Under the pieces are notes generated by a model, which made no database searches, was not told the DNA's origin, and saw only the letters and a program-made list of their open reading frames with translations. Shown piece by piece: positions 27,511 through 47,320 of a stretch of 64,000 nucleotides of DNA. Position 1 is the first letter of the stretch; each line of letters starts with the position of its first letter. The stretch comes from Herbiconiux moechotypicola. Its GTDB lineage: Bacteria; Actinomycetota; Actinomycetes; Actinomycetales; Microbacteriaceae. The stretch is taken from assembly GCF_024979255.1 (NCBI RefSeq), contig NZ_JANLCN010000005.1, positions 62,001 through 126,000 of the forward strand, given 5' to 3'. Position numbers and translations under genes: made by a program.

Positions 27511-27819
27511 TCAGGCCGGGACCGAGAAGAGCAGCTCCGTGTGATACACCCGCGGGGGCTCGGCGTAGAGGGGCGTGACGCGGTCGACGAACACGGTGAA
27601 GCCCTCGCTCGCGGTGAAGATCTCGGTGTGGTGCGCCACAGTCTCCCACTCGATGCGCAGCAGGAACGTGGAGTCCTTGTCGACGGCGCGGTCGAGGGTG
27701 AGGGAGTGGAAGCCCTCGGCTGCCTCGAAGATGGGCAGCGACAGCTCGACGAGCTCGGCGAACTTCTCCTCCGACCCCGGTGTCACGACGAATTCGGCGA
27801 TCTCCCACTTGGTGCTCAT
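27511..27819 (-). CDS. Antibiotic biosynthesis monooxygenase (ABM) domain protein
   Basis: A 102-residue single-domain protein with the dimeric alpha/beta-barrel ABM fold: WEIAEFVVTPGSEEKFAELV at the N-terminus, SLTLDRAVDKDSTFLLRIEW near residue 42 and VAHHTEIFTASEGF near 64. Relatives include small cofactor-free monooxygenases and heme or quinone-handling enzymes. ATG 27819 follows GAGAGGA; an upstream in-frame ATG has no such site. It is divergent from the TPP-dependent enzyme gene and has a TTGACA promoter that shares a motif with two monooxygenase promoters, tying it to that gene cluster. Confidence 0.82.
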   Translation of the reverse strand: MSTKWEIAEFVVTPGSEEKFAELVELSLPIFEAAEGFHSLTLDRAVDKDSTFLLRIEWETVAHHTEIFTASEGFTVFVDRVTPLYAEPPRVYHTELLFSVPA

Positions 27820-27854
27820 GGCGGTCCTCTCTAGGCGTGGTCTCACGTGAACTT

Positions 27855-27883
27855 TACAGACAGCCACGTTTCAAGCTTGTCAA
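27855..27883 (-). promoter_or_regulatory. promoter of ABM gene with shared cluster motif
   Basis: Reading leftward: -35 TTGACA (27883-27878), a 17-base spacer, then TCTGTA (27860-27855). The spacer contains gcttgaaacgtgg (27876-27864), nearly repeated at 29550-29563 and 37844-37856 upstream of two monooxygenase genes. This looks like a regulator site laid over the promoter. Confidence 0.55.
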
Positions 27884-27910
27884 TTGGTGAGATTGACGCC
27901 CGAGAGCCCG

Positions 27911-27920
27911 GTAACTTTGC
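27911..27920 (-). promoter_or_regulatory. second copy of cluster motif at start of TPP enzyme gene
   Basis: gtaactttgc on the plus strand is gcaaagttac on the minus strand, close to the gcaaaagttac seen at 29537-29547. It lies five bases before the GTG of the TPP-dependent enzyme, so it may act as an operator for that gene. Confidence 0.45.
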
Positions 27921-27925
27921 GTCTC

Positions 27926-29518
27926 GTGAACGATGAGCGCAGAACCACCGGTACCGCCATGATCCAGGCCCTCGAGCGCAACGGGGTCGAGCTCGTGCTC
28001 GGGATCCCCGGCACCCACAACATCGAGCTCTATCGCGGGCTGGAGCGGTCGACCACCATCCGTCACGTGCTCACGAAGCACGAGCAGGGCGCCGCCTATG
28101 CGGCCGACGGCTATGCGCGCGCCACCGGCCGGCCCGGTGTGGTGGTCACGACTTCGGGTCCGGGGCTCACCAACGCCCTCACCGGGATGGCCAACGCGTA
28201 CGCCGACTCCGTGCCCATGCTCGTGATCTCGCCCGCGATCCCCACCGGTCAGGAGCGCTCCGACATCGGCTGGCTGCACGAAATGAAGGACCAGCGGGCG
28301 GCGGTCGACAACATCGCCACCCGCAGCGTACGCGCCGGCACGCCGGCCGCCGCGGTCGACGCCGTGCACGAAGCCTTCGCGCGGTGGGCGGTGGAACGCC
28401 CCCGCCCCGTGCACATCGAGGTTCCGCTCGACGTGCTCGAGGCGGAGTGGGACCCTTCGCAAGACGCCCTCCTCGCCCCGTGGAGGACCCCGTCGCCAGC
28501 GGCCCCGGCTCCCGAGGCCGTCGCCCGCACTGCGGAGCTCGTCGAGGCCTCTCCACTGGTCGTGATCGTGGCCGGCGGCGGTGCCGTCGGCGCCTCCGAG
28601 TCGCTCACCCTCCTCGCCGAACGGCTGGCCGCGCCCGTGGTCACCACCACGCTCGGCAAGGGCGTGCTCGACGAGCGGCATCCGCTCTGCGTGGGCGAGT
28701 TCGCCACCAACACCGCCGTCTCCTCCCTTCTCGAGCGCGCCGACCTGGTGCTCGCGATCGGCACTGAGATCGCCGTGCCCGAGGTGTGGGGCGGGGTCAC
28801 CACACCGCGTGTGCGTGTCGACATCGATCCCGCCCAGCTGCACAAGAACATCCGCGCCGACGTGGCCGTGCACGCCGACGCCGACCTGTTCGCGAGGGCC
28901 CTGCTCGGCGCCGTCGAGGCGCGCGAGCACACCGGCCGGGTGGAGCTCGTCGCGGAGGTGCGCGCCGAGATCCTCGAGGGGATGGAGGCGGCCATCGGCC
29001 GCTGGCGGGCGATTCAAGACGAGCTCTCCGCCGCGCTGCCCGCCGACACCATCGTGACGGGCGACAGCTCCCAGGTCTCCTATCTCGGCACCGGTCCGTT
29101 CTGGCGCTTCGCGGAGCCGCGTCACTACCTCGTCACCACGGGCTTCTCGACCCTCGGCTACTCCCTGCCCGCGGCGATCGGCGCCAAGCTCGCCTTTCCC
29201 GAGGCCCCGGTCGTGTGCCTGGTCGGCGACGGAGCGTTCCTGTTCAGTGCGCAGGAGGTGCTCACGGCGCGCGAGCTCGGGCTGCCCCTCCCGATCGTCG
29301 TGGTCGACAACGCCGGCTTCGCCGAGATCCGCCAGAACATGACGGATGCGGGCATGCCGCCGCTGGCCGTCGACTACGCACCGCTCGGCATGGAGGCCTT
29401 CGCACACGCCGTCGGAGTCGCCTTCCGGAGCGTGGACGGGGTGGGAGAACTTGCGGCTGCCGTGGCCGACGCACTCACTGCGCCGGGGCCGACTCTCCTC
29501 CATTTGCAAATTACGTGA
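27926..29518 (+). CDS. TPP-dependent 2-oxoacid decarboxylase/acetolactate-synthase-like enzyme
   Basis: A 530-residue thiamine-diphosphate enzyme with the three standard domains. The catalytic Glu is in LTKHEQGAAYAADGYARATG near residue 50; the central domain spans about 190-330; the cofactor motif GDGAFLFSAQEV to VVVDN runs near 433-460. The N-terminus (GIPGTHNIELYRGL) resembles 5-guanidino-2-oxopentanoate decarboxylase (AruI)-type proteins, but substrate cannot be assigned. GTG 27926 is favoured: GDGA and Glu positions give a normal length, and a possible -10 (TAACTT, 27912-27917) would make the mRNA leaderless. ATG 27959 is the alternative. It heads the flavin monooxygenase cluster. Confidence 0.83.
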   Translation: MNDERRTTGTAMIQALERNGVELVLGIPGTHNIELYRGLERSTTIRHVLTKHEQGAAYAADGYARATGRPGVVVTTSGPGLTNALTGMANAYADSVPMLVISPAIPTGQERSDIGWLHEMKDQRAAVDNIATRSVRAGTPAAAVDAVHEAFARWAVERPRPVHIEVPLDVLEAEWDPSQDALLAPWRTPSPAAPAPEAVARTAELVEASPLVVIVAGGGAVGASESLTLLAERLAAPVVTTTLGKGVLDERHPLCVGEFATNTAVSSLLERADLVLAIGTEIAVPEVWGGVTTPRVRVDIDPAQLHKNIRADVAVHADADLFARALLGAVEAREHTGRVELVAEVRAEILEGMEAAIGRWRAIQDELSAALPADTIVTGDSSQVSYLGTGPFWRFAEPRHYLVTTGFSTLGYSLPAAIGAKLAFPEAPVVCLVGDGAFLFSAQEVLTARELGLPLPIVVVDNAGFAEIRQNMTDAGMPPLAVDYAPLGMEAFAHAVGVAFRSVDGVGELAAAVADALTAPGPTLLHLQIT

Positions 29519-29571
29519 GCCAAAGGAACGCCAGATGCAAAAGTTACATGCTTGAACACGTGGCGTAGCAA
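29505..29571 (+). promoter_or_regulatory. promoter/operator region of first NtaA-type monooxygenase
   Basis: Two related elements 31 bases apart: tgcaaattacgtgagc (29505-29520, overlapping the previous stop codon) and tgcaaaagttacatgcttg (29536-29554), the latter running into aacacgtgg. GTTACA (29543-29548), a 17-base gap and TAGCAA (29566-29571) could be the -35 and -10. The second element matches the one at 37830-37856 almost exactly. Confidence 0.6.
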
Positions 29572-29646
29572 ACTCGAAACATTCGCGAGAGAGGCTGGGG
29601 GTATCGCCCGGGATCCGGGGGAGCAACAGAAGGGTTTCGATCAGGC

Positions 29647-30966
29647 ATGAGCGCAGCGCGTTTCCACCTCGGCTGGTTCTTCGAGGGAGCGAGCCCCCAG
29701 GCGTGGGGCAAGCCCTTCACCGGCGCGATCGGCCGTGACTGGATGCGCCCCGACTTCTCCGAAGACGTCGCCCGCACGCTCGAGCGGGCGCGTTTCGACT
29801 ACGTGCTCATCGAGGACTCGTCGTACGTGGCCGACGTCTGGGGCGGCTCGATGAAGATCTACCTCGAGAACGCCATCGCCACCCCCCGGCAAGACCCGGC
29901 CGTGGTGGCCAACCTCATGCTGCAGGCCACGTCGCGCATCGGCATCGTGCCGACGCTCGCCACCTTCGCCTACCCGCCCTACATCCTCGCCCGCCTGGTC
30001 GGCACGCTCGACCAGGTCTCGAACGGCCGGGCCGGCTGGAACATGGTGACCGGCAGCTCCACCCGCGCGGCCCAGAACTTCGGCCTCGCCGACCAGGCCG
30101 AGCACGACAAGCGCTACGACATGGCCGACGAGTACATGCAGGTCGTCAACGGTCTCTGGGACTCCTGGTCGCCCTCGTCGATCAGGGCCGACCTCGAGAC
30201 CGGCATCTTCGCCGACGCCGACGAGGTGCACACGATCGACTTCGAGGGCGAGTACTACAGCGTGCGCGGCCCCCTCAACTCGGGCCCGCTGCCGCAGGGG
30301 CGGCCCGCCATCGCCCAGGCGGGCGGCTCGCCTCGCGGGCGTCAGTTCGCCGCGCAGTACGCCAACACGATCGTGACGGATGCGAAGGGCATCGACGCGA
30401 TGAAGGCCTACCGCGACGACGTGCGGGCCAGGATGGCCTCGCTCGGCCGCAACCCCGACGACTGCAAGGTGCTCTTTCTGGTCAACCCGGTCATCGGCCG
30501 CACCGAGCGGGATGCGCAGGAGCGCCTCGCCGAGCGCGAGGCCGCGGCGGTGGACGAGGCCGAGATCGTGCTCGCCCACTTCTCCAAGGTGACCAACATC
30601 GACTTCTCGGTGCTGGGCCTGGACGCCGTGCTCGGCGAGCAGGAGCTCACCACGAACGGCCACCAACAGAGCCTCGACCAGTTCATCTCCGCCAACCGCG
30701 GCAAGACGCTCCGCGAGGCGGCCGTCGGCAGTCTCGGTGCGAACGGTGCGGTGCCCTTCGTCGGCACGCCCGAGACCATCGCGGCGCAGATGGACGAGGT
30801 GATGCAGGAGGTGGGCGGCGACGGCTTCCTCTTCTACAGCGGCGAGCTCAACCGCAAGACGCTCGCCGAGGTGGCCGATGGGCTGGTGCCGGCGCTCCAG
30901 CGCCGTGGCCTCACCCGCACCGAGTACTCGCACGAGCGGTTCACCGACAACCTCCTCGACTTCTGA
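29647..30966 (+). CDS. NtaA/DszA-type flavin-dependent monooxygenase (first of three paralogs)
   Basis: A 439-residue luciferase-like TIM-barrel monooxygenase of the NtaA/SnaA/DszA group: ARFHLGWFFEG at the start, FDYVLIEDSSYVADVWGGS near residue 50, RAGWNMVTGSSTRAAQNFG near 122 and the FEGEYYSVRGPL substrate-loop segment near 200. These enzymes use reduced FMN and oxygen to attack C-N or C-S bonds in compounds such as nitrilotriacetate, EDTA or sulfones. They need a flavin reductase, and none is encoded nearby. It is followed by an ABC importer and two further paralogs downstream. Confidence 0.88.
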   Translation: MSAARFHLGWFFEGASPQAWGKPFTGAIGRDWMRPDFSEDVARTLERARFDYVLIEDSSYVADVWGGSMKIYLENAIATPRQDPAVVANLMLQATSRIGIVPTLATFAYPPYILARLVGTLDQVSNGRAGWNMVTGSSTRAAQNFGLADQAEHDKRYDMADEYMQVVNGLWDSWSPSSIRADLETGIFADADEVHTIDFEGEYYSVRGPLNSGPLPQGRPAIAQAGGSPRGRQFAAQYANTIVTDAKGIDAMKAYRDDVRARMASLGRNPDDCKVLFLVNPVIGRTERDAQERLAEREAAAVDEAEIVLAHFSKVTNIDFSVLGLDAVLGEQELTTNGHQQSLDQFISANRGKTLREAAVGSLGANGAVPFVGTPETIAAQMDEVMQEVGGDGFLFYSGELNRKTLAEVADGLVPALQRRGLTRTEYSHERFTDNLLDF

Positions 30967-31087
30967 CCCACGGCTCGCGCATCCCGACCCGCGCATCCGC
31001 ACGCCGACCCGACTTCCCGACCGCACCACCCCGCACCACACGCACCTCCCCCCACACCGGAGCACCACCTCACGAGAGGAACACCCC

Positions 31088-32167
31088 ATGAAGAAGAGGC
31101 ACGCGATCGCCGCGCTGACCTCGGTCGCCGCCCTGCTCGCGCTCAGCGCCTGCAGTTCGTCGAGCGAGGCCGGCACCTCCACCGCAGCCGCCGACGGCGA
31201 GCTCAGCGGTTCCGTCACCTTCGCCGGCTACGGCGGCACGGGCGAGGAGGCCGCCCGCGCGGCCTGGTTCGACCCCTTCACCGCCGAGACCGGGGTCGAG
31301 GTGCTGAACGACAGCCCCGTCACCTGGGCGCGCGTGCAGGAGATGGTCGCGGCCGACAACGTGGTGTGGGACGTCGCCCAGGGCGGCATCACCCAGGGTG
31401 TCGAAGACAACCCCGACCTCGAGATGATCGACTGCGACGTGGTCGACTGCGCCGCCTTCGACGACGCGGCCTTCCCCATCTACCCGCAGGCGGTGCCGCT
31501 GTTCACCTTCTCGCAGGTGGTGGCCTACAACACCGACACCTTCGGTGACGACGCGCCCTCCGGCTACGCCGACTTCTTCGACCCCTCGGTCGAGGGTCTG
31601 CGCCTCATGCCGAGCATCGGCGGCAACGCCTGGGCCGGCCAGCTCGAGGCCGCGCTGCTCTACGACGGCGTCGCCCGCGAAGACCTCTACCCCCTCGACG
31701 TCGACCGGGCGCTATCGGTGATCGACGGCATCAAGGACCAGATGGTCATCATGACCGACGACGGCCAGTGCATCAGCCAGGTCGCCTCGGGTGAGGCCGC
31801 CATGGGCATCTGCTACAACGGCCGCGTCGGCCTCGCCGCCGACGAGGGCCAGCCGGTCGCGGCGGCCTGGGGCCAGCAGACCATGCTCGCCGACTACATC
31901 TACATTCCCAAGGGCACCCCGAACCTCGCCAACGCGCAGGCTCTGGTCGCCTATATCGTCGAGAACCAGGGCGCCATCGCCAGCCAGATCGCCTACGGCC
32001 CGATCAACCCGAACGCACCGGTGGACACCGATTCCCCGTGGCTGTCGTACGTTCCCACCGAGAACGCCGAGGAGGGCGACCAGGCCCCGATCGTGCCCGA
32101 CCAGACCTGGTGGACCGAGAACTTCGACTCGGTCGTCGAGCAGCTCACCGCCTGGGCCGCTTCCTGA
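31088..32167 (+). CDS. ABC importer substrate-binding lipoprotein, polyamine (PotD) type
   Basis: A 359-residue lipoprotein: lipobox LLALSAC places the lipidated Cys near residue 22. The mature domain is an extracellular solute-binding protein of the spermidine/putrescine group (SVTFAGYGGTGEEAARAAWF, then DVAQGGITQGVEDN near 97). ATG 31088 follows AGGAA. The preceding 120 bases are C-rich and nearly free of G. Permeases and ATPase follow. Polyamine-type importers also carry opines, aminophosphonates and other cationic or zwitterionic compounds, so the ligand is open; it probably feeds the flanking monooxygenases and M20 hydrolase. Confidence 0.87.
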   Translation: MKKRHAIAALTSVAALLALSACSSSSEAGTSTAAADGELSGSVTFAGYGGTGEEAARAAWFDPFTAETGVEVLNDSPVTWARVQEMVAADNVVWDVAQGGITQGVEDNPDLEMIDCDVVDCAAFDDAAFPIYPQAVPLFTFSQVVAYNTDTFGDDAPSGYADFFDPSVEGLRLMPSIGGNAWAGQLEAALLYDGVAREDLYPLDVDRALSVIDGIKDQMVIMTDDGQCISQVASGEAAMGICYNGRVGLAADEGQPVAAAWGQQTMLADYIYIPKGTPNLANAQALVAYIVENQGAIASQIAYGPINPNAPVDTDSPWLSYVPTENAEEGDQAPIVPDQTWWTENFDSVVEQLTAWAAS

Positions 32168-32174
32168 TCCGCCC

Positions 32175-32207
32175 GGCGAGGCGGGGCCCCGGTGGCCCCG
32201 CCTCGCC
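32175..32207 (+). terminator. strong intercistronic hairpin after the binding-protein gene
   Basis: ggcgaggcggggcc (32175-32188) and ggccccgcctcgcc (32194-32207) form a perfect 14-bp stem around ccggt. Lying between the binding-protein and permease genes, it probably stabilises or partly terminates the mRNA, so that binding protein is made in excess. Confidence 0.75.
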
Positions 32208-32238
32208 ACCCTTTCCCGAACCCCTCCCGAGGAGCGCC

Positions 32239-33102
32239 ATGACGACTCCCCCCGCACCGCGCCGGCGTTTCGGCGTCGACTTCGCGACCGTGCTCGCCTC
32301 GCCCGCCGTGCTCTTCGGTGTGGCGGTGTTCCTCGTGCCGGTCATCGTGATCCTCGTGCGCAGCCTCACCGACCCGTCGCCCGCCACCTACGCCGACGCC
32401 GTCACGAGCGACATCTTCCTTCGCTCGATCTGGACGACGTTCCGCATGGCCGTCTGCGTCACCGCGGTGTGCCTGCTGGTGAGCTACCCCTACGCCTGGG
32501 CGCTCGCCCGTGGCCCGAAGGCGGTGCGCATCGTGCTGCTCGGCGCGGTGCTGCTGTCGTTCTGGACCAGCACGCTCGTGCGCACCTACGCCTGGCAGAT
32601 CCTGCTCAACAACACCGGCGTCATCAACAGCTTCCTGATCGACTCGGGGCTCATCTCCGACCCCCTCCCGCTCATCCGCACCGACTTCGCGGTCTACGTG
32701 GGCATGGCGCACATCCTGGCGCCCTTCACCATCCTCACCCTCTACACGCAGCTCACCTCGATCAAGCCCGAGGTCGAGCAGGCCGCGGCCAGCCTCGGCG
32801 CGAGCCCCACCTCCGTGTTCTGGCGCATCACGCTTCCGCTCTCGCTGCCCGGCGCCGCCGCGGGCGGGGTGCTCGTGTTCATCCTGTCGCTCGGCTTCTA
32901 CATCACGCCGGAGGTGCTCGGGAACTCGCGCGAGCTCTACCTCGGGTCGGTGATCGTGCAGCAGATCCAGGTGCTGCTGAACTCCGGAACGGGGGCCGCC
33001 ATGTCGATCGTGCTGCTCGTGATGGTGGTCGCGGTGCTGCTGCTGGTGGGCCGTTTCGTCGGCCTCGGCCGCATCCTCGGCATCAGGAGGGGAGACCGAT
33101 GA
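32239..33102 (+). CDS. ABC importer permease 1, PotB type
   Basis: A 287-residue membrane protein with about six transmembrane helices and the EAA coupling loop (EQAAASLGASPTSVFWRITL near residue 180) of PotB-type permeases. ATG 32239 follows GAGGAGC. Its stop overlaps the next gene's ATG. Confidence 0.9.
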   Translation: MTTPPAPRRRFGVDFATVLASPAVLFGVAVFLVPVIVILVRSLTDPSPATYADAVTSDIFLRSIWTTFRMAVCVTAVCLLVSYPYAWALARGPKAVRIVLLGAVLLSFWTSTLVRTYAWQILLNNTGVINSFLIDSGLISDPLPLIRTDFAVYVGMAHILAPFTILTLYTQLTSIKPEVEQAAASLGASPTSVFWRITLPLSLPGAAAGGVLVFILSLGFYITPEVLGNSRELYLGSVIVQQIQVLLNSGTGAAMSIVLLVMVVAVLLLVGRFVGLGRILGIRRGDR

Positions 33103-33947
33103 GGGCTCGCTGGTTCTCGATCACCGTCGCGGTCGTGATGGCCGTCGTCTTCATCGCGCCCACGATCGTGGTGGTCGGCTCGTCGTTCTCCGACTCGAGC
33201 TTCATCTCCTTCCCGCCCGAGGGCTTCTCGCTGCGCTGGTACGACGACGTGTTCGGCGACCCGCAGTGGATGCGCGCGTTCGGCAACAGCGTGGCCGTCG
33301 GCCTCCTCGCGGCGGCGCTGGCGATCGTGGTGGGCACGCTGCTCGCCATGGGAGCCGCCCGCAGCCGCATCCTGCCCTCGGCCGCGGTGACGGGACTCGC
33401 CGTCATCCCGATCGTGGTGCCGAGCGTGGTGCTCGGCGTGGGCTTCTACATCGTGGCGGTGAACCTCGGGTTCACCGGCAGTGTGGTGGGACTTGCGCTC
33501 GCGCACGCGGCGCTCGGCGCCCCGTATGTGTTCGTGGGGGTGCTCGCCGCGCTCACCTCGGTCGACCGCAGCACCGAGGAGGCCGCCCGGGTGAGCGGGG
33601 CCACGCAGCTCGGCGCGTTCCTCCGGGTGACCGTGCCGGCCATCGCGCCCGCGGCGCTCGTGGGCGGGCTGCTCGCCTTCATCACCTCGTGGGATGAGGT
33701 CATCGTCGCCGGGTTCATGACCTCGCCCAGCTTCCGCACCCTTCCCGTGCTCATCTTCGCGCAGGTGCGCACTGGGGCCGACCCCTCCACCTCTGCCGTC
33801 GCGACCGTGGTGACGGTGTTCTCGCTGCTGCTCATGCTCGTGGTGGGCGGGGTCTCGGCCCTGCTCGCCCGCCGTCGTCGCCTGGCCGCCACCAAGGCCA
33901 GGGCCGACGACACCGCAACCTCCGCCCCCGAGAAAGGCTCCCGATGA
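33099..33947 (+). CDS. ABC importer permease 2, PotC type
   Basis: A 282-residue membrane protein with six hydrophobic helices and the PotC-type loop EEAARVSGATQLGAFLRVTV near residue 163. The start (ATG 33099, with AGGAGGGGA upstream) overlaps the previous stop, and its own stop overlaps the ATPase ATG. It forms a heterodimeric channel with the preceding permease. Confidence 0.9.
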   Translation: MRARWFSITVAVVMAVVFIAPTIVVVGSSFSDSSFISFPPEGFSLRWYDDVFGDPQWMRAFGNSVAVGLLAAALAIVVGTLLAMGAARSRILPSAAVTGLAVIPIVVPSVVLGVGFYIVAVNLGFTGSVVGLALAHAALGAPYVFVGVLAALTSVDRSTEEAARVSGATQLGAFLRVTVPAIAPAALVGGLLAFITSWDEVIVAGFMTSPSFRTLPVLIFAQVRTGADPSTSAVATVVTVFSLLLMLVVGGVSALLARRRRLAATKARADDTATSAPEKGSR

Positions 33948-35068
33948 CCGCCCTGCAGCACGATGTCGCCGACCTCACGACGGCCGGCGCCGCGGTGTCG
34001 ATCCGCGGCGTGAGCAAGTACTACGGCTCCTTCGCCGCCGTCGACGACGTGTCGCTCGAGATCGAACCGGGCTCGTTCGTCACCCTGCTGGGTGCCTCCG
34101 GGTCGGGCAAGACCACGCTCCTGCGCATCCTCGCCGGCTTCCTCGACGCCTCGTCGGGGGCGATCGAGCTCGACGGCCGCGACCTCACCCGGGTGCCCGT
34201 GCACAAGCGGGAGATCGGCATGGTGTTCCAGAACTACGCCCTCTTCCCGCACATGACGGTGCAGAAGAACGTGGAGTTCCCGCTCGCGAGGCGCCGGGTG
34301 CCGCGCGCCGACCGGCCGCGGCTGATCGCCGAGGCGCTCGAGGCGGTGGAGCTCACCGGCTTCGAGCGGCGCATGCCCACCGAGCTCTCGGGCGGGCAGC
34401 AGCAGCGCGTGGCGCTCGCCCGCGCCATCGTGGCCAAGCCCCGCCTGCTGCTCATGGACGAGCCGCTCGGTGCGCTCGACCGCCGGCTGCGCGAGGCGCT
34501 GCAGGTGCAGATCCGACAGCTCAGCCACGAGCTCGGCCTCACTGTCATCAACGTGACGCACGACCAGGAGGAGGCGCTCACCATGAGCGACCGCATCGCC
34601 CTCCTGGCGGGCGGGCGGCTGGTGCAGTACGGCACGCCGTACGAGCTCTACGCCCGGCCCGGCAGCGAGGTGGCGGCACGGTTCCTCGGCGAGTCGAACA
34701 TCTTCAGCGGGGTGCCCCGGCAGCGCGCCGGGCTCTGGGAGATCGACGTGGCGGGGGAGTCGGTGCGACTGCCCGACAGTTCCACCGACCCGGTGCCGGG
34801 AGAGCAGGCCTCCGTGTTCATCCGCCCGCACCGGATGCACGTGGCGCCGGCCGGGTCGGCCCCGGCGGGCGAGGACCGCTGCACCGTGACCGGACGCGTC
34901 GCCGCGGCCATCTACGCGGGGGACTCCTGCAAGCTCCACGTCGAGCTGGAGCAGGGCGATCCCGTCGTCGTACGCGCCGACTCCGAGCTGCTGCAGACCG
35001 TCGCCACCGGCGACCGCGTCGAGGTGTCGTGGCGGCGCACCGACGCGCTGCTGCTCGCGCGGTCCTGA
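33944..35068 (+). CDS. ABC importer ATPase, PotA type with TOBE domain
   Basis: A 374-residue ATPase. Walker A is GASGSGKTT near residue 48, the signature is LSGGQQQRVALARAI near 148, and Walker B is LLLMDEPLGALDRRL near 169. A C-terminal TOBE-like regulatory domain occupies about 280-374 (VFIRPHRMHVAPAG). The ATG overlaps the permease stop codon. It powers the polyamine-type importer encoded upstream. A 15-bp tandem repeat begins two bases after its stop. Confidence 0.91.
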   Translation: MTALQHDVADLTTAGAAVSIRGVSKYYGSFAAVDDVSLEIEPGSFVTLLGASGSGKTTLLRILAGFLDASSGAIELDGRDLTRVPVHKREIGMVFQNYALFPHMTVQKNVEFPLARRRVPRADRPRLIAEALEAVELTGFERRMPTELSGGQQQRVALARAIVAKPRLLLMDEPLGALDRRLREALQVQIRQLSHELGLTVINVTHDQEEALTMSDRIALLAGGRLVQYGTPYELYARPGSEVAARFLGESNIFSGVPRQRAGLWEIDVAGESVRLPDSSTDPVPGEQASVFIRPHRMHVAPAGSAPAGEDRCTVTGRVAAAIYAGDSCKLHVELEQGDPVVVRADSELLQTVATGDRVEVSWRRTDALLLARS

Positions 35069-35070
35069 GC

Positions 35071-35137
35071 GCATCCGTACCATCCGCATCCGTACCATCC
35101 GCATCCGTACCACCCGCATCCGTACCACCCGCATCCG
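35071..35137 (+). repeat. 15-bp tandem repeat between ATPase and M20 genes
   Basis: Four copies of gcatccgtaccaycc (35071, 35086, 35101, 35116; y is t in the first two and c in the last two) plus a partial fifth (gcatccg). Each copy, read with the preceding c, contains CGCATCC, the reverse complement of the heptamer GGATGCG that is common throughout the window. Confidence 0.95.
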
Positions 35138-35165
35138 CACCCCCATCCAGACACGAGGAACCACC

Positions 35166-36743
35166 ATGGACTTCACCGAGCGTCAGCTCGAGGCGATCGG
35201 CATCGTCGACGATCTCCTGCCCGACTACTCCGCCTTCCACCGCGAGATCTGGGGCTACGCCGAGCCGGCCTGGCGCGAGTACCGCTCGGTGGCCGCCTAC
35301 GTGGCGAAGCTGCGCGAGGAGGGCTTCGAGGTGGAGGAGGGCTCCGGCGACATGCCGACCGCGTTCCACGCCACCTGGGGCTCGGGCGGGCCGAGCATCG
35401 GGCTCTACGCCGAGTACGACGCCTCGCCGGGCGCCTCGCAGGAGACCGTGCCCTACCGGCAGCCCCGTGAGGGCCTGCATCCGTGGGCGCCGGGCTTCAC
35501 GGATGCGCACAGCGCCCTCGGGGTCGGCGCGCTCGCCGGGGCGGTGGCGCTCAAGCGCACGCTGGAGCGCGCGGGCGGCGGCGCCACCATCCACTTCTTC
35601 GGCGAACCCGCCGAGAAGGTGTGCGGCTCGAAGTCGGTGCACGCGGCCAAGGGCTACTACGACCCGCTCGACGCGGCCATCTCGTTCCACCCGCTCTCCG
35701 ACAACACCGTCGTGGGTGAGCTCGGCGGCTGCCTCTACTGGAGTGCCGTGTTCACCTTCGAGTGCACCGACGACGAGCCGTGGCTGACCGTCGACCGCTT
35801 CGACTCGGCCGAGGCGAGCCAGCACAACTCGGTGCGCTCACCCGGCGCCGTCGATGCGCTCGCGCTCATGATCTCCACCACGAAGGCCACGCGCGAGAAC
35901 ATGTTCCCGCGCACGGGCCTGTGGTCGCTGAACGAGGTGGTGCTCGGTGGCGCGAACGCCACGGCCGACAACCAGGCGCCGCGCATCTCGCAGATCCAGT
36001 TCTCGTGGCGTTCGCCGCTGGTGGGCATCCAGGAGCAGATCTACGACGTGCTCGCCCGCTGCGCGAAGCACGTCGCCGGCATCACCAACACGGTGGCGTC
36101 GGTGCGCTGGGTCACCAAGATCCGGCCCGCCCTGCCCAACCTCGAGCTCGCCAGGGCGACCGAGGAGATCATGACCTCGCTCGGCCCGCCCGCCCGCGAC
36201 GAGAGCGTGGCCGAGTTCGGACGCGACCTCGAGCGCGCGCTCGGGCTGCCGGTGAGCGAGCAGCCCTTCCTCGGGGTGCTCGACACCATCACCCCGATCG
36301 AGGTGCGCGACGCGCGCATCCGCGAGACCATCCCGCCGTGGCAGGACTGCACCGGAGCCGACGACTACTCGGAGTACAGCTGGCACGCGCCGACGGTGCG
36401 GTTCTTCACCGCGAAGCCCCTGCTGAAGCAGGTGCCCGAGCTCAGCCACTGGTCGAACAACGCGATGAACGGGCTGGCCGAGGCGATCGACCCCACCTGG
36501 GTCTACGGCGCGAAGATCATCGCCGCCACGGCACTGCGGCTCATCGACGACCCCGCCCTGCTGGCCGCCGCCACCGAGGAGTACGCGACCCGCTTCGGTG
36601 CGGCGCCCGAGGAGTACCGCGCGCCGATGCTGCCGGCCGACTTCGCGCCGCCGGTCGACCTGCCGTGGCCCGAATACGTGACCACCGCGCGGGGATACGA
36701 GTGGGTGCTGCCGACGACCGGCGATCTGGGCGAACGGCTCTGA
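35166..36743 (+). CDS. M20-family amidohydrolase, AbgB-like
   Basis: A 525-residue metallohydrolase similar to AbgB (p-aminobenzoyl-glutamate hydrolase subunit) and to auxin-conjugate or peptide amidohydrolases. Metal-site blocks are visible: GLYAEYDASPG near residue 80, TDAHSALGVGALAG near 117 (where most M20D enzymes have a Cys-Gly-His), HFFGEPAEKVCGSKSVH near 142, AISFHPLSDN near 172 and YSWHAPTVRFF near 404. It should split an amide bond in the cytoplasm. It lies 97 bases after the importer ATPase in the same direction, and probably acts on the imported compound or a monooxygenase product. Confidence 0.83.
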   Translation: MDFTERQLEAIGIVDDLLPDYSAFHREIWGYAEPAWREYRSVAAYVAKLREEGFEVEEGSGDMPTAFHATWGSGGPSIGLYAEYDASPGASQETVPYRQPREGLHPWAPGFTDAHSALGVGALAGAVALKRTLERAGGGATIHFFGEPAEKVCGSKSVHAAKGYYDPLDAAISFHPLSDNTVVGELGGCLYWSAVFTFECTDDEPWLTVDRFDSAEASQHNSVRSPGAVDALALMISTTKATRENMFPRTGLWSLNEVVLGGANATADNQAPRISQIQFSWRSPLVGIQEQIYDVLARCAKHVAGITNTVASVRWVTKIRPALPNLELARATEEIMTSLGPPARDESVAEFGRDLERALGLPVSEQPFLGVLDTITPIEVRDARIRETIPPWQDCTGADDYSEYSWHAPTVRFFTAKPLLKQVPELSHWSNNAMNGLAEAIDPTWVYGAKIIAATALRLIDDPALLAAATEEYATRFGAAPEEYRAPMLPADFAPPVDLPWPEYVTTARGYEWVLPTTGDLGERL

Positions 36744-36758
36744 GGGACCGGAGTGCTG

Positions 36759-37706
36759 TCAGCGGGTGACGGAGTCCTCGAGCAGCCACGGGGTGGCCGC
36801 GATGTGCGTGCGCACGTAGGGCCACACCTGCACCTCGGTGACGCTCGGGATGGAGGCGATGGCGCGGCTGAGCCGCCCCACGTCCTCCTGGCTGCGGCAG
36901 GCGAACTCGGCGAGCGTGTTGAACATGCCGGTCTGCCACGACACGATGTTCACCTCGTCCATGTCGGCGATGGTGCGGAGCGCGGAGTCCACGTCGCCCG
37001 CGAGGCGGATGCCCATGTTGCCCACCACGGCGCGCCCCGTCGCGGTGCGGTCGAGCATCGCGGTGGGTCGGATGGTGTGCGTGGAGAACAGCTGCTGCAC
37101 GCGGCGGCGCACGTTCCAGTACGACTCGTCGACCTCGGCGGCGAGTTCGCGGTAGCTCGCCCTGGGGTTCTGCACGAGCACCCGGAGCAGCCGGATGTCG
37201 GACTCCGAGAGCTGGTCGTGGGGGATGGCCGAGCTCGAGTCGGGCCCGGGCTCGTCGGGCCGGCCCTGACTGTGCCACTTGTGGTACTCGAGCGTGCGCC
37301 ACACGTCGCGCACACGGATGTCGGGGTTGAGGTCGGTGATCTCCTGCAGCGTGCGGGCCAGCTCGTCGTCGTCGTGCCCGGCGATCTCCAGCAGCACGTT
37401 GTAGGGGCCGAGCACCTCGGTCATGTAGGTGATGTTGGGCATCCGCTGCAGCCGGAGCGCCAGTTCGGAGACCCGGCCGGGGTAGCTCAGCCAGGCGGTG
37501 CCGATGGCGAAGTAGCCCAGGGTGCTCGGATGCACGGCGCCGATGATGCGCAGCACCCCGTCGCTCACGAGCCGGCCCACGCGCGTGCGCACCGCGTCGG
37601 CGGAGAGCCCGACGGCCATGCCGATGTCGGCGAACGCCATGCGCCCGTCGTCGCGCAGCAGGGCCTGGATCTTCAGATCGGTGTCGTCGACCAGATAGCG
37701 CTCCAC
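36759..37706 (-). CDS. Two-domain Lrp/AsnC-family regulator
   Basis: A 315-residue protein, about twice the normal Lrp length, made of two tandem Lrp units. The first helix-turn-helix is DDTDLKIQALLRDDGRMAF near residue 6, the second SESDIRLLRVLVQNPRASYR near 158; each is followed by a ligand-sensing AsnC-type domain (ITYMTEVLGPYNVLLEIAGH near 97). GTG 37706 is chosen because GAGGGG precedes it; an in-frame ATG at 37745 lacks a ribosome site and lies only one base from a TACACT -10. Its position between the M20 and monooxygenase genes makes it the likely regulator of the whole cluster. Confidence 0.85.
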   Translation of the reverse strand: MERYLVDDTDLKIQALLRDDGRMAFADIGMAVGLSADAVRTRVGRLVSDGVLRIIGAVHPSTLGYFAIGTAWLSYPGRVSELALRLQRMPNITYMTEVLGPYNVLLEIAGHDDDELARTLQEITDLNPDIRVRDVWRTLEYHKWHSQGRPDEPGPDSSSAIPHDQLSESDIRLLRVLVQNPRASYRELAAEVDESYWNVRRRVQQLFSTHTIRPTAMLDRTATGRAVVGNMGIRLAGDVDSALRTIADMDEVNIVSWQTGMFNTLAEFACRSQEDVGRLSRAIASIPSVTEVQVWPYVRTHIAATPWLLEDSVTR

Positions 37707-37815
37707 GGCACCCCTCGCAGCGGGCGCGCCCAGCGGCGCGCGCATCAGTGTAGCGGCGATCTTAGCAACCTTCCTTCGCCTCGACGATAGCCCATCGCCC
37801 GGAAGTGTCGGCTTC

Positions 37816-37865
37816 AGTTACGGCACATGTGCAAAAGTAACGCGCTGGAAACATCGATTATGTAA
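37816..37865 (+). promoter_or_regulatory. promoter/operator region of second monooxygenase gene
   Basis: tgcaaaagtaacgcgctgg (37830-37848) continues as aaacatcg and matches the element at 29536-29563 at most positions. A further agttac lies 20 bases upstream of its agtaac (37816 and 37836). TATGTA (37859-37864) is a likely -10, 16 bases after GTAACG. It also lies upstream of the divergent Lrp-family gene. Confidence 0.6.
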
Positions 37866-37896
37866 ATTCATCTCGACTGATCGGGAAAGGGTGTCA

Positions 37897-39201
37897 ATGT
37901 TCCACCTCGCATGGTTCCTCAACGGGTACTCCGTGTCGCACTGGCACGGTCACTACGCCGGCATCAACAAGACCGAGTGGGCGAAACCCGACCTCTATGT
38001 CGACCTCACCCGCTCGCTCGAGCGCGCCGGCTTCGACGCCCTGTTCATCGAGGACACCACGATGATCGACGACACCTACGGCGGCAGCATGGAGGCCGCA
38101 CTCAAGTACGGCATCATGGCGCCGAAGAACGACCCCATGCCCTTGGTGCCGTTGCTGGCGCACCAGTCCAAGCACATCGGGCTCGTCTCCACCGTCTCGA
38201 CCATCCAGTACCACCCCTTCCTCGCCGCCCGTCTCGGCGCCACACTCGACCACCTCACCGAGGGTCGGTTCGGCTTCAACGTGGTGACCTCGGTGAGTCA
38301 CCGGGTGGCCCAGAACTTCGGATTCGACGAGCACCTGCCGCACGCCGAGCGCTACGCGATGGCCGAGGAGTGGCTCGACGCGGTGGGGGCGCTCTGGAAC
38401 TCGTGGGAGCCCGACGCCCTCGTGCTCGATGAGGAGACCCCGATGTTCGCCGACCACACGAAGGTGCACACGGTCGACTTCGAGGGCACGTACTTCCGCA
38501 CCCGCGGCCCCCTGAGCACGGTGCCGGGACCGCAGCACCGCCCGGTGGTGGCGCAGGCCGGCAACTCAGGCCCGGGGCGCGACCTCGCCGCCCGCAACGC
38601 CGACATGATGCTCGCGCTCGCCAACACCCCCGAGGGCATGAAGGAGATCCGCGAGGACATGCACCGGCGGCTGCGCAGCTACGGGCGCAACCCCGACGAC
38701 TTCAAGATCTTCTTCATGTGCCAGGTCTACCTCGGCGAGACAGACGACGACGCCCGTCGCACCCACGCCGCCGAAGAGGCCGTGCGCTTCTCGGAGGAGG
38801 GGATCGTGCGTCAGCTCTGGACCATGAGCTACGCCAGCGGCGGCGTGGTCGACTACTCCACACTCGACCTCGACGCGCCGCTGCCCGACACCCTCGGCAA
38901 TGGCGAGACCACCACCATGAAGGCGCTGCTCGAGGGCGCGGGCACCGTCACGCTCCGCGACCGGGTGATGGGCCCGAACAAGTACGGGTACGACTTCATC
39001 GGCTCCTCCGACTCCGTCGCGGCGCAGATGGACGAGGTGATGCAGGAGATGGGCGGCGACGGCTACCTCATCTTCGGGTCGACCCGGCGCACGAAGATCG
39101 CCGAGATCACCGACGGGCTGGCGCCCGCGCTCCGCCGCCGGGGGCTCATCCGTGAGTCGTACGACGAGCCCACCTTCCGCCAGAACCTGCTCGCGTTCTG
39201 A
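37897..39201 (+). CDS. NtaA/DszA-type flavin-dependent monooxygenase (second paralog)
   Basis: A 434-residue member of the same flavin-dependent family as the genes at 29647 and 39268: FHLAWFLNGYSVSHWHGHY at the start, FDALFIEDTTMIDDTYGGS near residue 46, RFGFNVVTSVSHRVAQNFGF near 124 and FEGTYFRTRGPL near 195. It lacks obvious defects. ATG 37897 is preferred to GTG 37891 because GGGAAAGGG gives better spacing. The next paralog follows after 66 bases, so the two are likely co-transcribed and may attack successive bonds or related substrates. Confidence 0.88.
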   Translation: MFHLAWFLNGYSVSHWHGHYAGINKTEWAKPDLYVDLTRSLERAGFDALFIEDTTMIDDTYGGSMEAALKYGIMAPKNDPMPLVPLLAHQSKHIGLVSTVSTIQYHPFLAARLGATLDHLTEGRFGFNVVTSVSHRVAQNFGFDEHLPHAERYAMAEEWLDAVGALWNSWEPDALVLDEETPMFADHTKVHTVDFEGTYFRTRGPLSTVPGPQHRPVVAQAGNSGPGRDLAARNADMMLALANTPEGMKEIREDMHRRLRSYGRNPDDFKIFFMCQVYLGETDDDARRTHAAEEAVRFSEEGIVRQLWTMSYASGGVVDYSTLDLDAPLPDTLGNGETTTMKALLEGAGTVTLRDRVMGPNKYGYDFIGSSDSVAAQMDEVMQEMGGDGYLIFGSTRRTKIAEITDGLAPALRRRGLIRESYDEPTFRQNLLAF

Positions 39202-39267
39202 GCCGCGCGTACCGCCCGCACCGCGCGCCCCGCGCATCCGCTCGACCCCTCTGAAAGGACCTCACCC

Positions 39268-40575
39268 ATGAGCGACAAGTTCCACCTCGGCTGGTTCGTC
39301 GACGGCTTCCGCGTTCCGGCCTGGAACCGCGACTGGTCGGGCACCTCCACCCAGGACTGGGTGAGCGGGCGCTTCTACGTCGACATGGCGCGCGACCTCG
39401 AGCGCGGCTGCTTCGACTACATCATGCTCGAAGACTCCAACTACGTGCCCGACGTCTACGGCGGCAGCACCGAGGTCTACCTCAAGTACGGGCAGCGGGC
39501 GCCGAAGCACGACCCCGCCGTGCTGGCCACGCTCATCGCGGCCGCCACCTCGAACCTCGGCATCATCACCACCCTCGCCACCACCGAGATCTCGCCGTTC
39601 CGCCTGGCGCGGCTCATGCAGACCCTCGACGGGGTGTCGGGCGGGCGCATCGGCTGGAACGTGGTGACGGGCAGCAACGACCGCGCCGCGCAGAACTTCG
39701 GCTTCGAGGCGCAGCCGCCGCACGACCAGCGCTACGACATGGCCGACGAGTTCATCCAGGCGGTGCGGGCGCTCTGGGACTCGTGGGAGGACGGCGCCGT
39801 CATCGCCGACGTGGAGTCGAACGTGTACGTCGACGCCTCGAAGGTCTCCGACGTCGACTTCGAGGGCACCTACTACCGCACCCGCGGGCCGCTCAACACC
39901 ATCCCGGGGCCACAGAAGCACCCCATCCTGGTGCAGGCGGGGGTGTCGCCGCGCGGGCAGAAGTTCGCGGCGCGGCACGCCGACTCGGTGATCGCCACCG
40001 GGTCGAGCATCGACGGGATGCGCGAGCTGCGCGCCAGCATCAAGCAGCACGCCGCCGACGCGGGGCGGAACCCCGACGACGTGAAGGTGCTCTTCCTGGT
40101 CGAGCCGATCCTCGGTGAGACCGACGAGGATGCGCGGGCCAGGCAGCAGCGCGTGGCGGCCGAGCGCGACCGGCTGCTCGACTTCGGGCTCAGCTCGCTC
40201 GCGAGCGTGACGGCCACCGACTTCTCCACCTTCGACCCCGACGAGCCGCTGCCGCTCGGGCTCACCACCAACGGGCACCAGGGCCAGCTGGCCGACATGG
40301 TGCGCTCGCGCCGGCCGCTGCGCGAGCTCGCGGTGGGGGCGTGGGCGGGCTCCGACGAGGCCGACCTCGTGGGCACCCCCGCCACGGTGGCCGCCAAGAT
40401 GGCAGGGCTCATGGACGAGGTGGGCGGCGACGGATTCCTGCTCACCTCGCTCAACCCCACCCGCCGTTACGTCACAGAGGTGGTCGACGGGCTCGTGCCC
40501 GAGCTGCAGCGCCTCGGCCGCGTGCGCACCGAGTACGCCCAGCCGACGGTGCGCGGCACGCTCACCGAGTTCTGA
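39268..40575 (+). CDS. NtaA/DszA-type flavin-dependent monooxygenase (third paralog)
   Basis: A 435-residue flavin-dependent monooxygenase: DKFHLGWFVDGFRVPAWN, FDYIMLEDSNYVPDVYGGS near residue 50, RIGWNVVTGSNDRAAQNFGF near 127, and FEGTYYRTRGPL near 200. It is closer to the first paralog (29647) than to the second in these blocks. ATG 39268 follows GAAAGGA. It closes the catabolic cluster. Like its paralogs it needs a flavin reductase, and none is seen in the window. Confidence 0.88.
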   Translation: MSDKFHLGWFVDGFRVPAWNRDWSGTSTQDWVSGRFYVDMARDLERGCFDYIMLEDSNYVPDVYGGSTEVYLKYGQRAPKHDPAVLATLIAAATSNLGIITTLATTEISPFRLARLMQTLDGVSGGRIGWNVVTGSNDRAAQNFGFEAQPPHDQRYDMADEFIQAVRALWDSWEDGAVIADVESNVYVDASKVSDVDFEGTYYRTRGPLNTIPGPQKHPILVQAGVSPRGQKFAARHADSVIATGSSIDGMRELRASIKQHAADAGRNPDDVKVLFLVEPILGETDEDARARQQRVAAERDRLLDFGLSSLASVTATDFSTFDPDEPLPLGLTTNGHQGQLADMVRSRRPLRELAVGAWAGSDEADLVGTPATVAAKMAGLMDEVGGDGFLLTSLNPTRRYVTEVVDGLVPELQRLGRVRTEYAQPTVRGTLTEF

Positions 40576-42009: not shown

Positions 42010-45000
42010 TCAGCCCCGGCGTGCCCGGCGGCTCGTGGCGAGGGTGACGCCCGCGCCGGCGAGGAGCAGGAGCAGAGCGCCGGCCAGCCAGCCGCCGAGC
42101 TCGTAGCCCGTGTTCGGCAGAGCGGCGACCGAGGTGCCGTCCGTGCCGTCGGCCGTGCCCGTGCCGGTGTCGGTGCCGCCCGTGCTGCCGCCGTCCGACG
42201 GAGCCGGGGTGACACCGCCGTCGGTCGCGGCGACCTCCACGGCCACCCAGCCGATCACCGATCCGTCGACCGCGCGCACCACGAGGTGGTGGGTGTCCGC
42301 GGCGAGCCCGGTCGGCAGCGTGACGGTGACGGTGCCGGAGGCGCTCACCTGCTGCCAGCCGAGGAAGGCCGGATCGGAGTGCACCTCGGCGCCCACGAAC
42401 CTGCCCGCCAGCTCGGCGGCCCGGTCCTCGTCGCCGAGCGACACGGTCACGACCGAGCCGTCCACCGAGAGCACCGTCGCGTCGCCCGCCGCGGCCGCGG
42501 CGAGCTCCTCGTCGGTGAGCGGGGTGAGCGCGTCCACCGGGGCGACGACCGTGAGCACCGCCTCGTCGGAGGTGACCGAGCCGAGGCCGTTGGTCACCAC
42601 CGCACGCACCACGGCGCCGGAGTCCGACTCGTCGAACGGCAGCCGGAGCGTGGACTCCGTCGCGCCGTCGAGGGCGGCCCACTCGCCGTCGCTGCCCTGG
42701 CGCTCCCACTGCACGGTGGGCGTGGGCGAGCCCGTCGCCTGGACCGTGAACGAGGCGGTCGGGGTGCCCGCGGCCATCGGCGCCGAGAGGTCGGCCGGCT
42801 GGCCGGAGAGCGCTGGGGCGCTCTCGTCGAGTGTCACCGGCGTGGCCGTCTCGTAGGGCGCGTACACCACACCGCCACCGGCGTAGGTGTAGACGCCGTA
42901 CTCGCCGGCCTTGTCGTAGGCGCCTCCGGCCACCGTGAGGGTGGCGGTGAAGGTGCCGTCGGGCTCCAGCTCGATGGCACCGCGCTCGGCACCGCCGATC
43001 GTGGCCATGTCGGCGGCGTTCACGGCCCACACGGTCGACAGACCCGAACGCGCCGACGACGCGGCGCCCTCGCTCGGCTTCCAGGTGGAGTCGAAACGGC
43101 CGAACACCACGTAGACGCCGCCGAAGGACCCGGCCAGCGGCGGTCGCACCGCCGTGGTGGCCGCCCCGTCGGGCAGGAACCCGGAGCCGGTGACGGTGAT
43201 CGTCTCACCGTCGGCGTCGAGGCCCTCGGTCTTCGAGACCGTGACCGTCGGCTGGAGCGCCGACACCGTGAGAGCGGCCTCGGCGGAGACGACCGAGCCG
43301 AGCCCGTTCGACACCACGACCCGGTAGAGCGAGCCGGAGGCGGCCGAGCTCGCGGTGACCTCGTAGCTCGCCGAGGTGGCGCCCTCGAGGTCGGCCCACT
43401 CGCCGCCCGCGGGCTGCGACTGCCACTGGTAGGCCACCTCGGGGCTGCCCGAGGCGCTCACCGTGAACGTCGCGGTGCCGCCGACCGAGGTCGAGACCGC
43501 CGCCGGCTGGGCGTCGATCACGGGCGCGCTGCCGAGCGCGATCGGGGCGAACCCGTCGAACTCGCGCAGCTCGCGGCCGCCGTCGGTGGGGCTCCACAGC
43601 CAGGCGAAGCCGTACTGCTTCGACGGGTCGAGCGTGCCGGCGGGCACGGTGACGGTGTCGCGGCGGAACGACCAGTCGCCCGCACCCCACCGGTTGACGG
43701 TGCCCGCGACGAAGTCGTCGGCCGTCACGGAGTCCTCACCCGGCTGCCAGACCGAGGCGTCGACGAGTCCGCTGAGGAACACGCCCGGCTCGCTCCACGA
43801 GATCTCGGGCTGCTGCCCGAGGGTCCAGGTGATGGCGTTGTCCACCGAGGGGTCGATCAGGCCGGGCATGGCGTAGATCGGGCCCTCGGAGGCGGGGACG
43901 ACGTGGATCGTCGCGACGTCGGAGACCACGCGGCCGCCTTCGTTCTCGACCACGGCGCGGTACTGCACGCCGTCGAGCTCCGCGGTCGCAGTGAACTCGA
44001 AGATCTCGCCGGTGTACTCCGACTCGCTCCAGGTGGCCCCGCCGTCGGTGCTGGTCTCCCAGACGACCGTCGGGTAGGGAGCACCCTCGACGCCCACGAG
44101 CAGGTAGCTCGAGGCTCCCTCGAACACGGGCACGTCGCTCGGCTGGTAGTTGATGCCGGCCGGTTGCGTGACCACCGTGAGGGTCACCTCGTCGGAGTAC
44201 GCGACGCCGTAGTCGTTCTCGGCCACGGCGCGGAACACCGAGCCCGAGTCGCCGAGCGTCGCCGGCGGGGTGGCGTAGCCGTAGACCGACTGGCTGCTCT
44301 CGGCCCACGAGTTCGAGTCGCCGGGTGCCGGCGACCAGCTGCCGTCGGCGCCCTTGATCTCCCAGCGCATCGTCGGCAGCGGGTAGCCGCTGGCGATCGC
44401 CGAGAAGTAGGAGCCCTGCTCGACCAGCGCCTCGTAGTCGGTGGGCTGCTGGGTGAACACGGGGGCGGCCGACGCGGTGACCGTGAGGGTCGCCTCGGCC
44501 GACACCACGCTGTTCACCGACGAGCCGGCCACGAACCGCACCGCGGCGCCGTTCCACTCGGCCGCGAGCACCGAGGTGAGCACGAGCGAGCTGTCGGTCG
44601 CGCCCTCGATGTCGGCCCAGTCGCCGCCGGCCTTCTTCGCCTGCCACTGGAACGACACGTCACCGGATGCGGCGGTCGCCCCACCGGTGAAGGTCACGTC
44701 CTGGCCCTCCACGATGGAGGCGGAGGCGGGCTGGCTGGAGATGAGCACGTCGTACTCGGGCGCGGAGCCCGAGAACGCCACGTCGATCGCCATCGGCGGC
44801 TTCAGCGGGTCTGCGGAGAGCCCGCTGGTGTGCCAGTAGCTCGACAGCCCGGTGGCGTACTGGAAGTCGACGAACGACTCCGGCCACGAACCCCAGTCCG
44901 GGTTGGCGTCCTTGGCCGCCTGCGGCACCGCCGAGACGCTCTTGCGCTCCGAATCGGGGTTCAGCGGGTCGGTGAGCGGGAAGTAGTCCACACCCGCCCA

Positions 45001-47286: not shown

Positions 47287-47320
47287 AGATGCTCCTGAGT
47301 GATGGTGCGGATGGAGAAGT

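What the first reader, a model, noticed from the sequence alone, without database searches (positions are those of the whole stretch)
27511..40575. Candidate undescribed catabolic system: three NtaA-type monooxygenases with importer, M20 hydrolase, TPP enzyme and a double Lrp regulator
Seen: within 13 kb, three paralogous flavin-dependent monooxygenases of the NtaA/DszA group, a full polyamine-type ABC importer, an AbgB-like M20 amidohydrolase, a TPP-dependent 2-oxoacid decarboxylase-like enzyme, an ABM protein and a two-domain Lrp regulator. Known: NtaA-type enzymes cleave C-N or C-S bonds, M20D enzymes cleave N-acyl bonds, TPP enzymes decarboxylate 2-oxoacids. Inference: a pathway for an N-acylated or N-substituted cationic compound (opine, amino-acid conjugate or chelator-like), taken up, hydrolysed, oxygenated and decarboxylated. 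I do not recognise this gene set as a described pathway. No flavin reductase is present.
Basis: partly seen in the sequence, partly recalled or inferred. Interest (0 to 1): 0.78.

Follow-up and report, generated by a model that had tools for sequence, protein, structure and literature searches.

The report
Undescribed omega-amino acid catabolic cluster
An actinobacterium carries a gene cluster, shared in part with distant relatives, that probably imports and breaks down an unknown nitrogen-containing acid, and one of its enzymes belongs to a group with an unusual metal site.

Summary
The conserved core is a TPP decarboxylase, a GABA-type ABC importer, an M20 hydrolase and a tandem-Lrp regulator. 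It recurs in the same order in six genomes of at least two other families, without NtaA genes. A second layout (Amidohydro_3 and M20, often with TPP, a 2-hydroxyacid dehydrogenase and a tandem Lrp) occurs in 15 loci of three families. The three NtaA/DszA-type monooxygenases and the ABM gene are absent from all 26 relatives read; this genome has at least 35 NtaA-type genes. They still look recruited: one motif occurs three times in 4.28 Mb, at this cluster's three promoter gaps (a post hoc pattern), and a second TPP paralogue also sits among three NtaA genes of the same clade. The binding protein keeps the GABA-binding Arg and Asp, so a polyamine is unlikely. The M20 enzyme is nearest HmrA/PM20D2, and its clade (27 of 27 read) has an altered metal-site signature (D-x-H, E-K). 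The substrate is unknown; an omega-amino or guanidino acid derivative is most likely.

The parts
27511..27834 (-). ABM-domain protein, role unknown
   Evidence: PF03992, 30.3 bits over cut-off 23.1; not found in 26 relatives
27906..27921 (-). motif site 1 (ABM/TPP gap), possible operator
   Evidence: G000:C34:89906-89921
27923..29518 (+). TPP-dependent 2-oxo acid decarboxylase, AruI-like
   Evidence: PRK07524 best, 483.4 bits, cut-off 500; three TPP domains
29536..29551 (+). motif site 2 (before Nta1), possible operator
   Evidence: 56% G+C gap
29647..30966 (+). Nta1, two-component flavin monooxygenase, DszA-like clade
   Evidence: TIGR03860 381.5 bits; best solved relative DszA; tree
31088..32167 (+). 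GABA-type solute-binding protein
32239..33102 (+). ABC permease A (PotB-like)
33099..33947 (+). ABC permease B (PotC-like)
33944..35068 (+). ABC ATPase (potA-like)
35166..36743 (+). M20 hydrolase, HmrA/PM20D2-like fold, altered metal-site signature
36759..37745 (-). tandem (two-unit) Lrp/AsnC regulator
   Evidence: two PF13404 stretches
37830..37845 (+). motif site 3 (Lrp/Nta2 gap), possible operator
   Evidence: 52% G+C gap
37891..39201 (+). Nta2, two-component flavin monooxygenase
   Evidence: TIGR03860 371.4 bits; nearest own-genome paralogue C6:28108, 57-58%
39268..40575 (+). Nta3, two-component flavin monooxygenase
   Evidence: PF00296; TIGR03860 388.2 bits

Best explanation
A probably acquired catabolic module for an omega-amino or guanidino acid type of compound. 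The GABA-type importer takes up the substrate. A 2-oxo acid is decarboxylated by the AruI-like TPP enzyme to an aldehyde, which an aldehyde dehydrogenase oxidises (in the operon in three relatives; here the best candidate is unlinked, G000:C3:82486-83874). The M20 hydrolase cuts an amide bond in the substrate or an intermediate. The tandem Lrp protein controls the cluster, perhaps through one motif found at its three promoter gaps. In this genome three monooxygenases of a DszA-like clade were recruited. Their most likely role is oxidative C-N or C-S cleavage next to a carboxyl group, which would release the 2-oxo acid for the TPP enzyme, in place of the aminotransferase found beside three relatives. 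Shown: gene content, conservation, motif, pocket residues, M20 signature. Inferred: every reaction, the order of steps, what Lrp binds, and the substrate.
For: Core order conserved in six of six layout A relatives. TPP best family is 5-guanidino-2-oxopentanoate decarboxylase, by 130 bits over the next. ALDH between TPP and SBP in L001, L057, L058; the two scored pass the aminobutyraldehyde dehydrogenase cut-off. An AruI homologue of S. meliloti prefers 5-amino-oxopentanoate (PMC7268258, passages). Binding protein nearest GABA proteins, with R246, D269, F141 and Y303 kept in 7 of 7 sequences. Motif 3 times in the genome, all here. Second TPP paralogue of the genome also among three NtaA genes, ALDH and an ABC importer; all six TPP-linked NtaA genes fall in one clade of 11 of 35. 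The NtaA-family enzyme YxeK releases a 2-oxo acid, oxaloacetate (PMC9706529, abstract and passages).
Against: TPP is under the AruI cut-off. No aminotransferase or ALDH lies in the window cluster. M20 occurs without a TPP gene in 10 of 26 relatives read, so the two are not obligate partners, and layout B pairs M20 with an Amidohydro_3 enzyme in 15 of 15. No relative has NtaA genes. The motif was defined from its own three sites; the looser search is at control level and layout A relatives lack it. The motif may belong to another regulator. No substrate was tested.
Confidence: 0.42

Rival explanations
1. The monooxygenases replace the aldehyde dehydrogenase: Nta1 stands where ALDH stands in three relatives and, as bacterial luciferase does with its aldehyde (recalled), would oxidise the aldehyde made by the TPP enzyme.
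For: Order TPP-ALDH-SBP in L001, L057, L058 against TPP-Nta1-SBP here.
Against: The second TPP locus has both ALDH and NtaA genes; the genome has a 57% identical ALDH elsewhere; NtaA-family enzymes with known roles cleave C-N or C-S bonds (PMC10863075, abstract and introduction).
Confidence: 0.14
2. An S-substituted cysteine salvage pathway of the yxe/ytm kind: monooxygenase cleaves C-S, M20 enzyme removes an N-acyl group, importer feeds it.
For: Same three family types (NtaA-family monooxygenase, ABC importer, M20); YxeK releases oxaloacetate and YxeP deacetylates.
Confidence: 0.08
3. An opine or aminopolycarboxylate pathway in the strict sense: NtaA-type oxidation of an N-carboxyalkyl amino acid to an amine and a 2-oxo acid (as NTA gives glyoxylate, recalled), then decarboxylation.
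For: Agropine and mannopine binding proteins are among the SBP's solved relatives.
Against: GABA-type proteins score higher (252-257 against 218 bits for agropine permease); relatives of the core have no NtaA gene.
Confidence: 0.12
4. Two unrelated units: the core module, and NtaA genes that landed beside it in a genome rich in them.
For: At least 35 NtaA-type genes in the genome; 10% of the genome lies within 9 kb of one; no relative links them to the core.
Against: Three within 12 kb is found for 1.4% of the genome; Nta1 lies inside the operon; motif shared by the TPP, Nta1 and Nta2 gaps; TPP-NtaA linkage occurs twice.
Confidence: 0.2

Closest known systems
Arginine transaminase (Aru) pathway of Pseudomonas and the rhizobial arginine transamination network
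   Same: AruI-like TPP decarboxylase, aminobutyraldehyde-type dehydrogenase in three relatives, and a GABA/5-aminovalerate-type binding protein near the locus (PMC11113362, PMC7268258)
   Different: No AruH-type transaminase in the window cluster, an M20 hydrolase, tandem Lrp in place of the AruSR two-component system, NtaA genes
yxe/ytm-type cysteine-adduct salvage of Bacillus
   Same: NtaA-family monooxygenase, ABC importer and M20 enzyme together
   Different: TPP decarboxylase, other M20 clade, no acetyltransferase, GABA-type importer
HmrA and human PM20D2 (beta-alanyl-lysine dipeptidase)
   Different: 21% identity; D-x-H for C-G-H and E-K for E-E (HmrA alignment; counts); about 125 residues longer
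GABA-binding protein Pf622 (iGABASnFR)
   Same: Arg205, Asp228, Phe102 and Tyr264 of the GABA site kept
   Different: Trp202 to Tyr, Trp9 to Tyr, Thr13 to Gly in the window protein, so the ligand may differ
DszA (dibenzothiophene sulfone monooxygenase)
   Same: best solved relative of Nta1, 245 bits
   Different: no other dsz-type gene among the eleven

Membership tests
NtaA/DmoA FMN-dependent monooxygenases (TIGR03860) | score over the curated cut-off of 279.7 | tested here: met
   381.5 and 371.4 (Nta1, Nta2), 388.2 (Nta3)
NtaA/DmoA FMN-dependent monooxygenases (TIGR03860) | use of FMNH2 from a separate reductase | not testable with these tools
   four PF01613 genes elsewhere, none linked
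5-guanidino-2-oxopentanoate decarboxylase (AruI, PRK07524) | score over the curated cut-off of 500 | tested here: not met
   483.4 bits; best family of all, next 351.8. Works like it possible, membership not claimed
GABA-type solute-binding proteins | Arg and Asp that hold carboxylate and amine | tested here: met
   R246 and D269 invariant in window and six relatives, aligned to R205 and D228 (mapping by hand)
GABA-type solute-binding proteins | full aromatic wall of the site (W9, F100, F102, W202, Y264) | tested here: inconclusive
   F100, F102 and Y264 kept; W9 and W202 are Tyr in the window protein
M20D amidohydrolases | C-G-H and E-E metal and base signature | tested here: not met
   T-D-x-H and P-A-E-K in 27 of 27 clade members; C-G-H and E-E in 15 of 20 other M20 loci, one with the clade's motifs, four not read
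HmrA/PM20D2-like M20 enzymes | fold | tested here: met
PM20D2 beta-alanyl-lysine dipeptidase | dipeptidase activity on beta-alanyl or GABA dipeptides | not testable with these tools
yxe-type salvage locus | at least three of YxeK, YxeL, YxeMNO, YxeP, YxeQ (definition in PMC9706529) | tested here: inconclusive
   three family-level counterparts (monooxygenase, importer, M20), but orthology was not tested and each has a nearer relative elsewhere
yxe-type salvage locus | N-acetyltransferase (YxeL) | tested here: not met
   none among the eleven genes

The most novel reading that the evidence does not exclude
The M20 clade is a new catalytic type of M20 enzyme: the second metal's carboxylate ligand is replaced by an invariant lysine and the cysteine ligand by aspartate, so it works with one metal and a lysine (or a carboxylated lysine) in the second site. 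It is the hub of an undescribed pathway, found in Actinomycetota, Thermomicrobiota, Alphaproteobacteria and an archaeal bin, which different hosts link to different enzymes that supply a 2-oxo acid, among them NtaA-type monooxygenases here.
Probability: 0.28. Interest if true: 0.65.

Novelty: new variant of a known kind. Interest (0 to 1): 0.5.

Why it matters
It gives a concrete, testable module (regulator, importer, decarboxylase, hydrolase) for which my paper searches found no description, a diagnostic M20 signature that separates a whole clade from ordinary amidohydrolases, and a possible case of flavin monooxygenases recruited to feed a decarboxylase. A genus with up to dozens of NtaA-type enzymes per genome is a good place to find their unknown substrates.

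Full report
What is there. The window is part of a 4.28 Mb genome in 51 contigs (window = C34:62001-126000), 71.6% G+C. Between 27511 and 40575 lie eleven intact genes in the order ABM(-), TPP, Nta1, SBP, PermA, PermB, ATPase, M20, tandem Lrp(-), Nta2, Nta3. Of seven gaps measured, three are low in G+C and look like promoter regions: 27835-27925 (53%), 29519-29646 (56%) and 37746-37890 (52%); the other four are 65-83%. This suggests the units TPP, Nta1-SBP-PermA-PermB-ATPase-M20 and Nta2-Nta3, with ABM and Lrp reading outwards. That is an inference; no promoter-like site was found by the consensus scan.

The conserved core. I searched for relatives of the M20 protein in genome contigs (6 loci) and in whole genomes: 150 of the family, 394 of the class and 396 of the order; these sets overlap. 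I then read the surroundings of 26 relatives at 39% identity or more (L001-L006, L037-L042, L057-L061, L130-L138). Layout A, six loci (L001 Acrocarpospora; L057, L058 of family f24; L059-L061 of family f27): TPP, GABA-type SBP, two permeases, ATPase, M20, a gene like the MFS gene of L001, and the tandem Lrp, in this order in six of six. In L001, L057 and L058 an aldehyde dehydrogenase stands between TPP and SBP; L001's and L057's were scored and both pass the aminobutyraldehyde dehydrogenase cut-off (671.1 and 697.5 bits against 615). Layout B, 15 loci of families f1, f2 and f6 (L037-L042, L130-L138): M20 with an Amidohydro_3 enzyme in 15, TPP in 10, a D-2-hydroxyacid dehydrogenase in 10, an Lrp match in 10 (eight over 260 residues or more, two over only 130-146), an L040-like SBP_bac_3 protein in 6 and an MppQ-like aminotransferase in 3, one of them cut by the stretch's end (families). 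L041 has a transporter of the MFS/Sugar_tr kind in place of the ABC importer. The other five (L002-L006) have M20 with an ABC ATPase (four) or alone (one); L002 and L003 lie near contig ends. In all 26: TPP 16, Lrp 16, NtaA-type 0, ABM 0 at E 1e-6. A miss can also mean that a gene lies outside the stretch. In the other 15 genomes of the genus the SBP search found only 31-37% identical matches, in 7 of 15, so the core was probably acquired.

A possible operator. The three low-G+C gaps share YGCAAAN{0,1}GTWACN{2,4}GC. It occurs three times in the genome, once in each gap, and the backward control gives none. GCAAAAGTWAC with one mismatch allowed gives 2 matches in the window against 0.08 expected. 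The pattern was drawn from these sites, so the count is post hoc, and the looser genome search (7 matches, control 6 and 6) is at control level. A related stretch lies in the Lrp-SBP gap of L037 and twice in that of L040; the pattern found none in L038, L039, L041, L042, L001 or L057-L061. I take it as a likely but unproved operator, and that Lrp binds it is inferred. It matters because two of the three sites stand before monooxygenase genes.

The monooxygenases. PF00296 has 65 matches in this genome; at least 35 genes pass the NtaA/DmoA cut-off (my count of the rows, whose list is cut), and the 16 genomes of the genus have 9 to 59 matches each at E 0.001. In a tree of 35, Nta1, Nta2 and Nta3 fall in one group of 11 (support 100/99), which also holds the three NtaA genes around the genome's second TPP paralogue. 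That locus, C22:1-19500, has TPP (50% identical), ALDH, an ABC importer with an SBP_bac_3 protein, an alcohol dehydrogenase-like gene, two LacI-type regulators and no M20 match. Three NtaA starts within 12 kb is found for 1.4% of the genome. All six TPP-linked NtaA genes belonging to a group of 11 among 35 is unlikely by chance, though the C22 three are each other's nearest kin and so not independent. Nta1's best solved relative is DszA; Nta2 and Nta3 were not searched. No NtaA match was found near seven other TPP relatives fetched (L098-L104).

The binding protein. In a profile search the GABA sensors 9d57 and 6dgv and the entry 4eq7 come first (252-257 bits), agropine permease next (218), the first protein named spermidine/putrescine-binding at 112. 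The GABA site of iGABASnFR2 is W9, T13, F100, Y102 (Phe before mutation), W202, R205, D228 and Y264 (PMC12999171, passages). Mapped by hand through these are Y48, G52, F139, F141, Y243, R246, D269 and Y303 of the window protein; F141, Y243, R246, D269 and Y303 are invariant in the window protein and six relatives.

The TPP enzyme. Its best NCBIfam model is 5-guanidino-2-oxopentanoate decarboxylase (483.4 bits, cut-off 500, next family 351.8), and relatives of layouts A and B behave alike (L059 450.4, L040 449.1). In Sinorhizobium an AruI homologue was seven times more active on 5-amino-oxopentanoate (PMC7268258, passages). In Pseudomonas a binding protein for GABA and 5-aminovalerate, of the same Pfam family SBP_bac_8, is encoded near the regulator of the arginine transaminase pathway (PMC11113362, abstract and passages).

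How it most likely works. The importer takes up an omega-amino or guanidino acid type of compound; a 2-oxo acid is formed, decarboxylated by the TPP enzyme and oxidised by a dehydrogenase; the M20 enzyme cuts an amide. In layout B three loci carry an aminotransferase that could make the 2-oxo acid. Here NtaA-type enzymes could make it by oxidative cleavage, as YxeK releases oxaloacetate (PMC9706529, abstract and passages). The rival in which Nta1 replaces the aldehyde dehydrogenase rests on its position and is not excluded; nor is chance company of the NtaA genes. All reactions are inferred.

Verdict. The gene families are known; the combination and the M20 clade are not described in what I could search (and the listings named under Tried and rejected); the substrate is open.

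Noticed in passing
whole genome G000 and its genus: 65 luciferase-like (PF00296) matches and at least 35 NtaA/DmoA genes in 4.28 Mb; the 16 genomes of the genus have 9-59 NtaA/DmoA matches each at E 0.001.
   Followed up: partly
L091 (G000:C22:1-19500): Second cluster with a TPP paralogue, ALDH, SBP_bac_3 importer and three NtaA genes, no M20.
   Followed up: partly
L074:6509-8845 (G000:C34): One 778-residue open frame that joins a luciferase-like domain to an FAD_binding_4/BBE domain.
   Followed up: no
window 35069-35165: Short tandem repeats of about 12 bases (GCATCCGTACCA-like) in the gap between ATPase and M20.
   Followed up: no
window 42010-47346 (-): 1778-residue secreted-looking protein that ends in LPNTG, a hydrophobic stretch and basic residues, like a sortase-anchored surface protein (motif recalled).
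   Followed up: no
L037-L042, L130-L138: M20 of this clade is paired with an Amidohydro_3 enzyme in 15 of 15 loci, five of them without TPP (L130, L131, L135, L137, L138); this pair may be an older unit than the TPP link.
   Followed up: partly
L062 (G545:C1:3351500-3371000): A genus mate has a related importer with an aldehyde dehydrogenase upstream and two NtaA-type genes downstream, beside an asparaginase-like gene.
   Followed up: no
L015 (G060:C2): A more distant M20 protein (36% identity) with the same TD-x-H and E-K signature.
   Followed up: no
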